From NCBI GenBank assembly GCA_017441925.1, contig JAFRUE010000001.1, positions 1 through 64,000 of the forward strand: a stretch of 64,000 bases of DNA, in the 5' to 3' direction. Both the position numbers and the translations under genes were made by a program. The notes below the pieces were generated by a model. The model had not been told where the DNA came from, did not search any database, and saw only the letters and a program-made list of their open reading frames with translations. Below, piece after piece: positions 36,519 to 37,265 of the stretch. This DNA is from Bacillota bacterium. GTDB taxonomy: Bacteria; Bacillota; Clostridia; Lachnospirales; Bianqueaceae. Within the stretch, counting starts at the first letter, position 1. The number at the start of each line of letters is the position of its first letter.

Positions 36519-36971
36519 ATGAAACTGGCGACAGCATTGTCCGAACGGGCGGATTTGCAGCGCAGGATTTCCGAACTGAGTGTCAGACTCAACAACAACG
36601 CGAAGGTGCAGGAGGGCGAGAAGCCGGCTGAGGATCCGGCCGCGCTGCTTGCAGAGCTGGACGATTGCCTGAAAAGGCTGGAGGATCTGATCGCGCGGAT
36701 CAATAAGACCAATAATGAGACCGTCGACGGCGGTGTAACGATCGCGGATCTGATCGCCCGCAGGGACTGCCTGAAAGAACGGATCTGCATCATGCGGGCT
36801 TTTCTGAACGAGACGAGCGACCGCGTCAACCGGTATTCCAAAGCGGAGATCAAGATCCTCAGCACGGTTTCGGTGCCAGAGCTGCAGAAACAGGTCGACG
36901 CGTATGCTAAGGAACTCCGCGAGACCGATGAGCGGATCCAGGGCCTGAACTGGACGACGGAGCTTATCTGA
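36519..36971 (+). CDS. DIP1984-family (septicolysin-like) helical protein
   Basis: 150 residues from ATG 36519 (AGGAGG 9 bases upstream); an open frame reaching back to 36348 overlaps the previous gene and is not used. The pattern MKLATALSERADLQRRISEL, RLNNNAKVQEGEKPAEDP and NKTNNETVDGGVTIADLIARRD is characteristic of the DIP1984 family. It is almost entirely alpha-helical. The molecular function is unsettled. A tRNA-like structured sequence begins directly after the stop codon. Confidence 0.85.
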   Translation: MKLATALSERADLQRRISELSVRLNNNAKVQEGEKPAEDPAALLAELDDCLKRLEDLIARINKTNNETVDGGVTIADLIARRDCLKERICIMRAFLNETSDRVNRYSKAEIKILSTVSVPELQKQVDAYAKELRETDERIQGLNWTTELI

Positions 36972-37055
36972 ACCGCGGCGGCCGGCCCGATGCGGGCCGA
37001 TACGGTGGCAATCCGCTGCAGCCGCACAAATCAGCACGAGTTTAATTTCGAAGGT

Positions 37056-37147
37056 AGTCTGTCTGGGTGGACATGATCTCCCGCGATTGAGAATGAATCG
37101 CACGGTAGGTGTGCAGAGCGCATGCCAGAGGGTCCGACTCCCTCACT
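37056..37147 (+). ncRNA. tRNA-like non-coding RNA behind the DIP1984 gene
   Basis: Folding by hand gives a cloverleaf-like order: short closing stem AGT (37056-37058) with ACT (37145-37147). D-like arm TGTC/GACA (37060-37063, 37070-37073) with loop TGGGTG. Anticodon-like arm GCGATT/AATCGC (37083-37088, 37096-37101) with a 7-base loop. Long variable arm (37109-37114 with 37120-37125). T-like arm GAGGG/CCCTC (37128-37132, 37140-37144) with loop TCCGACT, close to the universal T-loop. There is no proper acceptor stem or anticodon-loop U33, so it is not a normal tRNA. A GC-rich stem-loop (36975-37025) may be a 5' module of the same RNA. Confidence 0.6.
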
Positions 37148-37169
37148 TTATACTGTATGCTCAGTACTG

Positions 37170-37197
37170 TTACACGCGTACGGTTACATTGTATGAT
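37170..37197 (+). promoter_or_regulatory. Possible promoter of the tautomerase gene
   Basis: TTACAC (37170-37175), 16 bases, TATGAT (37192-37197), about 70 bases before the start codon. Confidence 0.35.
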
Positions 37198-37265
37198 GAA
37201 TACCTATTGTCAGCAGACCGACGAGGGCGGGATCGGGGAATATATATTATAAGGAGGCGGAGACA

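What the first reader, a model, noticed from the sequence alone, without database searches (positions are those of the whole stretch)
36519..37147. tRNA-like RNA directly behind a DIP1984-family gene
A cloverleaf-like fold with D-like, anticodon-like (7-base loop), long variable and near-canonical T-arm (loop TCCGACT) follows the DIP1984 gene, with a GC-rich stem-loop before it. It lacks a usable acceptor stem and anticodon loop. Comparative work on RNA-repair systems has described a tRNA-like RNA with SPFH/Band-7 modules and Y RNAs with tRNA-like parts. I recall, but cannot confirm, that DIP1984 proteins occur in such contexts. Here no RtcB ligase or Band-7 gene is near, so it may be a minimal protein-RNA pair.
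Basis: partly seen in the sequence, partly recalled or inferred. Interest (0 to 1): 0.8.

Follow-up and report, generated by a model that had tools for sequence, protein, structure and literature searches.

The report
tRNA-like RNA paired with DIP1984
Behind almost every gene for the unexplained bacterial protein DIP1984 lies an uncatalogued, strongly conserved, partly tRNA-shaped RNA, so the two are very probably one small mobile protein-RNA machine carried by many bacteria, plasmids and phages.

Summary
A ~190-nt structured RNA (window 37049-37239) follows the DIP1984/DUF6847 gene (36519-36971). A covariance model built from it finds the same RNA directly behind DIP1984 in 99 of 100 loci, and behind every full-length gene but two tandem copies in a Bacillota sample. 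It also occurs in Actinomycetota, Cyanobacteriota, Alphaproteobacteria, plasmids and phages. No convincing copy lacks DIP1984 in two searches of 246 and 398 genomes. Covariation is overwhelming: 31 of 41 pairs show compensatory changes, 0/500 shuffles.

Architecture: a two-part long-range closing stem, an H-type pseudoknot, an anticodon-arm-like hairpin whose 7-nt loop pairs downstream, an often present tRNA T-arm with a co-occurring D-loop-like GG, and a conserved G-rich 3' tail.

The RNA is probably co-transcribed with DIP1984 (median gap 7 nt); protein binding and function are inferred. RtcB lies beside the pair in two independent lineages, but the window's genome has no RtcB match, so RtcB repair is not the general mechanism. 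Rfam has no match. Burroughs & Aravind 2016 may have described part of this; it could not be read.

The parts
36519..36971 (+). DIP1984 / DUF6847 gene, 150 aa, four-helix coiled-coil protein
   Evidence: NF038048 E 3e-55, PF20935 E 5e-55; AlphaFold2 pLDDT 93.5; matches PDB 3KDQ, Z 16.5, rmsd 1.4 over 150 residues
37049..37239 (+). conserved tRNA-like RNA (model R1, 193 positions)
   Evidence: 176.9 bits, E 5e-52 (this sequence is a member of the training set); MAFFT alignment covariation independent of the model
37053..37057 (+). conserved 5' GGUAG
   Evidence: GGUA near-invariant in the A4 alignment; consensus GGTAg in A5
37057..37065 (+). closing stem P1, 5' strand (pairs with 37214-37222)
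   Evidence: covariation z 5-28, 85-99% of sequences paired; also in the MAFFT alignment
37068..37074 (+). closing stem P2, 5' strand (pairs with 37207-37212)
   Evidence: covariation z 12-23; z 9-18 in the MAFFT alignment
37077..37080 (+). pseudoknot PK2, UCUC pairing with GAGA 37089-37092 in the loop of H1
   Evidence: z 6.1 for 37079-37090; 86-94% of cells paired
37083..37101 (+). hairpin H1 (37083-37088 / 37096-37101)
   Evidence: z 16-20; 93.7% of cells paired
37104..37108 (+). D-loop-like GGUAG
   Evidence: present in 62/65 RNAs with a T-loop, 12/37 without (p 9e-12, not corrected for kinship)
37109..37125 (+). hairpin H2, anticodon-arm-like, 5 bp and 7-nt loop
   Evidence: z 9-22
37116..37119 (+). 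pseudoknot PK1: H2 loop GAGC pairs with GCUC 37159-37162
   Evidence: all four pairs have compensatory changes, pairing not part of the model; z about 4
37128..37144 (+). T-arm, 5 bp, loop UCCGACU (family consensus GGUUCGAAUCC)
   Evidence: 93.8% of cells paired; z 12-13; T-loop present in 65 of 102 RNAs
37153..37183 (+). hairpin H4 (37153-37158 / 37178-37183), less certain
   Evidence: only 54.5% of cells paired
37202..37204 (+). conserved ACC (UUACUACC in most members)
   Evidence: consensus TtActACC in 102 RNAs
37207..37222 (+). 3' strands of P2 and P1
37223..37239 (+). conserved single-stranded 3' tail GAGGGYGGGNNNGGGG
   Evidence: near-invariant in Bacillota, present in Actinomycetota, Paracoccus and Cyanobacteriota, absent in the Moraxellaceae examples

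Best explanation
DIP1984 and this RNA are the two parts of one mobile ribonucleoprotein module. They are transcribed together; the RNA forms the 3' part of the DIP1984 message and is probably released by processing or termination (inferred). It folds into a tRNA-like core closed by the long-range P1/P2 stem. The DIP1984 coiled coil, which has a weak sequence resemblance to the tRNA-binding arm of seryl-tRNA synthetase, binds it (inferred). The particle most likely acts in trans, as an accessory conflict or stress device around tRNA or the translation machinery, for example as a decoy or sensor for RNA-damaging effectors that sometimes works beside RtcB. Shown: strict coupling, structure, mobility. 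Inferred: binding, trans action, purpose.
For: The RNA lies behind DIP1984 in 99 of 100 loci; the hundredth, L084, ends at a contig edge. In a 398-genome phylum sample, single-copy full-length genes all have it. No hit better than 1e-4 lacks DIP1984. Covariation is massive and two pseudoknots are supported. Median stop-to-RNA gap is 7 nt; terminator-like sites follow the RNA in 22/101 loci versus 12/182 random stretches. Downstream genes vary: tautomerase here, a DinB-like polymerase in the sister species (the latter read by eye). A phage contig carries two RNA copies 0.5 and 1.3 kb behind its gene, which speaks for trans action. The gene moves horizontally: Gammaproteobacteria at 69-71% identity against 47-49% in genomes of the same family. 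RtcB is adjacent in two lineages. SerRS-arm hit E 6e-4, below the Pfam cut-off.
Against: The protein is not basic (median pI 6.0; window 5.2), so RNA binding is not obvious from its make-up. The fold search finds only its own family (3KDQ) as a whole-length match. The SerRS-arm hit may only reflect coiled-coil composition. No expression or binding data exist here. Sixteen of 40 DIP1984 genomes have no RtcB match. DIP1984 matches no defence family convincingly.
Confidence: 0.6

Rival explanations
1. Cis element only: the RNA is a structured 3' UTR that DIP1984 or another factor binds to regulate or stabilise the DIP1984 message, with no separate product.
For: It is almost always within a few bases of the stop codon of the same gene, and no convincing orphan copy was found.
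Against: A phage contig has two copies set well apart from the gene; L071 and L011 have tandem copies. About 190 nt with two pseudoknots and a tRNA-like elbow is elaborate for autoregulation.
Confidence: 0.2
2. Toxin-antitoxin-like addiction pair: one partner is harmful and the other neutralises it, which explains its spread on plasmids, dif modules and phages.
For: Patchy distribution (about 6-9% of Bacillota genomes), horizontal transfer, presence on plasmids and phages, and as a dif-module gene in Acinetobacter beside toxin-antitoxin modules (PMC6160057, PMC13141974).
Against: DIP1984 has no nuclease or other catalytic signature; the RNA is one folded unit, not the repeat array of type III antitoxins; no toxin family match.
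Confidence: 0.15
3. Dedicated cofactor of RtcB RNA repair: a scaffold or substrate carrier of the kind proposed for Band-7/tRNA-like and Ro/Y-RNA systems.
For: rtcB-DIP1984-RNA gene order in two independent lineages; RtcB modestly enriched in DIP1984 genomes.
Against: The window's genome and 15 of 39 other DIP1984 genomes have no RtcB match; about 95% of neighbourhoods have no RtcB beside the gene.
Confidence: 0.15
4. A decayed tRNA or chance cloverleaf with no function.
For: ARAGORN finds no tRNA and the single-sequence fold is not unusually stable.
Against: Compensatory changes in 31 of 41 pairs and conservation across phyla.
Confidence: 0.01

Closest known systems
Band-7/SPFH-linked tRNA-like RNA of RNA-repair systems (Burroughs & Aravind 2016, from memory; paper not held)
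   Same: A tRNA-like non-coding RNA coupled to a small set of proteins, with an RtcB link in some members here.
   Different: Here the constant partner is DIP1984, no Band-7 gene recurs among neighbours, and the own genome has no RtcB match. Whether it is the same RNA cannot be told here.
Ro60/Rsr with bacterial Y RNA (YrlA)
   Same: Works alike in principle: a dedicated protein encoded next to an RNA with a tRNA-like module (from established knowledge).
   Different: DIP1984 matches no TROVE model and the RNA matches no Rfam family.
OLE RNA with OapA
   Same: Structured bacterial RNA coupled to the gene of its protein partner (from established knowledge).
   Different: Far longer RNA and a membrane protein; no Rfam match here.
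tmRNA (tRNA-like domain plus pseudoknots) with SmpB
   Same: tRNA-like elbow and pseudoknots.
   Different: No tRNA acceptor end, no tag found; ARAGORN detects no tmRNA.
Tymovirus tRNA-like 3' structures (RF00233)
   Same: tRNA-like parts combined with pseudoknots.
   Different: Only a chance-level model hit (14.2 bits against a cut-off of 40).

Membership tests
DIP1984 / DUF6847 protein family | match to the curated family models over the cut-off | tested here: met
   NF038048 186.5 bits (cut-off 70), PF20935 185.8 bits (cut-off 27); same fold as PDB 3KDQ
DIP1984-associated RNA defined here | P1/P2 closing stem with covariation, directly behind DIP1984 | tested here: met
tRNA | cloverleaf with acceptor stem, scored by ARAGORN or the Rfam tRNA model | tested here: not met
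   no gene found; no Rfam tRNA match at this place
tRNA-like elbow (D-loop GG / T-loop) | T-arm with UUCRA loop and a GG-bearing loop 5' of the anticodon-like arm, evolving together | tested here: met
   62/65 RNAs with a T-loop carry GG, 12/37 without; the tertiary contact itself is not testable here
any Rfam 15 family | match at the gathering score | tested here: not met
   none in the window; permissive searches of 901 bases here and of 13 other loci gave nothing convincing at the RNA
tmRNA | tRNA-like ends and tag reading frame | tested here: not met
   ARAGORN
RtcB RNA-repair system | RtcB encoded with the module | tested here: not met
   no RtcB match in the own genome, 97.9% complete; adjacent in 4 of 85 neighbourhoods elsewhere
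Band-7/SPFH-linked tRNA-like RNA system | Band-7 gene beside the RNA | tested here: inconclusive
   not among the recurrent neighbour families, but only the 25 commonest are listed; the original RNA could not be compared
seryl-tRNA synthetase N-terminal arm | Pfam Seryl_tRNA_N over the cut-off | tested here: not met
   20.5 bits against a cut-off of 28.2
type III toxin-antitoxin | repeat-array RNA and ToxN-like endoribonuclease | tested here: not met
   no such family match for the protein; the RNA is a single folded unit

The most novel reading that the evidence does not exclude
An undescribed class of bacterial non-coding RNA, obligately encoded at the 3' end of DIP1984 messages, founds a new type of mobile two-part ribonucleoprotein found in at least five bacterial phyla and in phages. 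Its anticodon-like loop is locked by an intramolecular pseudoknot and its tRNA elbow is an optional module.
Probability: 0.45. Interest if true: 0.87.

Novelty: new variant of a known kind. Interest (0 to 1): 0.78.

Why it matters
DIP1984/DUF6847 is a widespread family with a solved structure (3KDQ) and no known function. An obligate RNA partner makes its role directly testable. The RNA is absent from Rfam 15 and has an unusual design: a tRNA-like elbow that is kept or lost as a unit, an anticodon-like loop held by a pseudoknot, and a conserved G-rich tail. The finding also bears on the gene annotated 'septicolysin' on Acinetobacter plasmids (the family is on more than 340 of them in the collection searched), which is a DIP1984 family member with an RNA of the same plan behind it.

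Tried and rejected
Rfam at gathering and permissive thresholds: nothing convincing at this RNA. ARAGORN: no tRNA or tmRNA. Single-sequence folding: not distinguishable from shuffles, so all structure claims rest on comparison. First idea that 5' GGUAG pairs with the conserved CUACC: dropped, because by eye the changes do not match (UGUAG facing UUACC) and no such pair is among the strongest covarying pairs. Neighbour search for a conserved operon partner: only RtcB recurs meaningfully. Orphan RNAs: the weak hits L133, L186, L188 (E 5e-4 to 9e-4 per genome) have no DIP1984 in the stretch held and are at chance level for this number of genomes. Pattern scan of viral contigs: 13 stretches, of which two (L189, L194) are real and both have DIP1984. 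A simple descriptor scan found P1/P2 in Moraxellaceae (0/20 shuffles) but not above shuffles in the window's own RNA or Enterococcus, so it is used only for Moraxellaceae. PADLOC hits (E 1e-4 and weaker) are to coiled-coil parts of large ATPases and are not taken as homology. In the PDB fold search only 3KDQ stands out; the other matches are within the range of common helical arrangements. Literature: DIP1984 and DUF6847 essentially unmentioned; Burroughs & Aravind 2016 not held.

Full report
WHAT IS THERE. The window holds a DIP1984/DUF6847 gene at 36519-36971 (NF038048 E 3e-55; PF20935 E 5e-55). Upstream are a peroxiredoxin and an ArsC/Spx-like gene, downstream a tautomerase gene. ARAGORN and Rfam find nothing convincing here. 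Comparison shows it is not.

CONSERVATION. DIP1984 genes were collected from the window's order, a set of 84,980 species genomes, viral contigs, plasmids and phage records. In the sister species the sequence behind the gene is nearly identical over about 190 nt, although the next gene is different (DinB-like by eye). Across distant loci the same plan recurs, ending in GAGGGYGGGNNNGGGG about 160-200 nt behind the stop codon in most. A covariance model (R1) from 21 of these sequences finds the RNA directly behind DIP1984 in 99 of 100 sources. The exception, L084, ends at a contig edge. Outside Bacillota it scores 33-68 bits behind DIP1984 in Mycobacterium branderi, Streptomyces, Paracoccus and Picosynechococcus. 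In Acinetobacter and Psychrobacter it has diverged and lost the G-rich tail, but P1/P2 are perfect or nearly so and exceed all 20 shuffles; by eye the loop pseudoknot is also kept with different bases.

SPECIFICITY. In 246 genomes of the order, the RNA was found in 14; 13 are DIP1984 genomes and the fourteenth is a weak partial hit. In 398 genomes of the phylum, every hit better than 1e-4 is behind DIP1984; one of them, in G463, follows a gene cut by the contig edge. Conversely, full-length genes in that sample all have a model hit behind them, some weak, except that the second of two tandem genes in two related genomes gave none, although by eye its downstream sequence looks similar. The two partners therefore behave as one unit.

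STRUCTURE. On a MAFFT alignment that used no structure, the strongest covarying pairs are those of P1 and P2 (z up to 23). On the 21-sequence alignment, 31 of 41 pairs have changes on both sides, 80% of cells pair, and no shuffle of 500 reaches the covariation score; slid structures fall to 36-47%. On 102 sequences, P1, P2, H1, H2 and the T-arm have z mostly 9-28; these helices are part of the model, so this second count leans towards them. Two pseudoknots that are not part of the model are also supported: the H2 loop with a downstream strand, and the H1 loop with the strand before it (52 doubly changed cells against 16 expected, 0/500). H4 is weak. Window coordinates are in the parts list.

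tRNA LIKENESS. H2 has the 5-bp stem and 7-nt loop of an anticodon arm, and its loop is tied up by pairing downstream. The T-arm consensus GGUUCGAAUCC is that of tRNA; the T-loop is present in 65 of 102 RNAs. A GG motif at the place of a D-loop is present in 62 of those 65 and in only 12 of the other 37 (p 9e-12, not corrected for kinship). The simplest reading is a tRNA-type elbow that is gained or lost as a unit. There is no tRNA acceptor stem; P1/P2 close the molecule instead.

TRANSCRIPTION. The median distance from stop codon to RNA is 7 nt. Terminator-like sites follow the RNA in 22 of 101 loci against 12 of 182 random stretches, and lie between gene and RNA in one locus, L011 (before its second, tandem copy); the other flagged case, L100, is a chance hit 2.8 kb away. 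So the RNA is most likely the 3' part of the DIP1984 transcript.

PROTEIN. AlphaFold2 gives a confident four-helix coiled-coil model (pLDDT 93.5). The only clear match among solved structures is DIP1984 itself, 3KDQ. There is a sub-threshold match to the SerRS tRNA-binding arm (E 6e-4). Nearly invariant residues include K2, R10, R23, N62, N65, R105, E110, R134, Q141, N144 and W145. The protein is slightly acidic (median pI 6.0), which argues for caution about direct RNA binding.

MOBILITY AND CONTEXT. The pair is patchy: 20 of 246 genomes in the order and 23 of 398 in the phylum have DIP1984 over the family cut-off. Rumen Gammaproteobacteria carry proteins 69-71% identical to this one, while genomes of its own family have 47-49%. 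It is on plasmids and phages. One phage contig has two RNA copies apart from the gene, and L071 and L011 have tandem RNAs. Neighbouring genes are mostly unrelated from locus to locus; RtcB is the recurrent one, directly upstream in four loci of two independent lineages. RtcB is found in 24 of 40 DIP1984 genomes and 10 of 31 others (p 0.03, not corrected for kinship), but not in the window's genome.

HOW IT LIKELY WORKS. Shown: strict coupling, conserved structure, close linkage, horizontal spread. Inferred: co-transcription and processing; that DIP1984 binds the RNA; that the particle acts in trans on tRNA-related business, probably as an accessory stress or conflict module; and that RtcB is an optional partner. 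Rivals are a cis-regulatory 3' UTR, an addiction pair, and an RtcB cofactor.

WHAT IS KNOWN. No Rfam 15 family matches. DIP1984 and DUF6847 are practically absent from the held literature. From memory, Burroughs & Aravind (NAR 2016) described a tRNA-like molecule with SPFH/Band-7 modules in RNA-repair systems; that paper is not held, so identity with this RNA is open and limits the novelty claim. An SPFH gene embedded in the P. aeruginosa rtc locus is reported in PMC13086221, whose text does not mention tRNA.

Noticed in passing
L140, L143 (Acinetobacter plasmids); records CP007578, CP035675, CP015486, CP040049, CP035933: The plasmid gene annotated 'septicolysin' (the name also used in dif-module papers PMC6160057 and PMC13141974) is a DIP1984 family gene followed by an RNA of the same plan; the cytolysin name looks wrong.
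   Followed up: partly
L109 5994-6179 and 6795-6984: A 178-kb viral contig with DIP1984 carries two copies of the RNA, 0.5 and 1.3 kb behind the gene, differing by compensatory changes in P2 by eye.
   Followed up: partly
L047, L051, L052, L011: rtcB lies directly upstream of DIP1984 (gap about 14-28 nt), giving an rtcB-DIP1984-RNA order in two lineages.
   Followed up: yes
G256 contig 35 and G342 contig 4 (L149, L150, L170, L171): Two DIP1984 genes about 2 kb apart; the second gave no model hit but its downstream sequence looks like a diverged RNA.
   Followed up: partly
L202 (Enterococcus faecium plasmid), L142 (Enterococcus phage record): Nearly identical short sequences behind DIP1984 that look like a reduced RNA without T-arm, with a terminator-like hairpin after the tail; L142 was not found by the model and neither stood out in the descriptor scan.
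   Followed up: partly
L135, L141 (Picosynechococcus plasmids): DIP1984-RNA lies near a VWA-domain gene, a nucleotidyltransferase gene and several toxin-antitoxin genes.
   Followed up: no
window 37223-37239: The conserved tail GAGGGYGGGNNNGGGG after the closing stem has no explanation here; three G runs could take part in a quadruplex or bind a partner.
   Followed up: no
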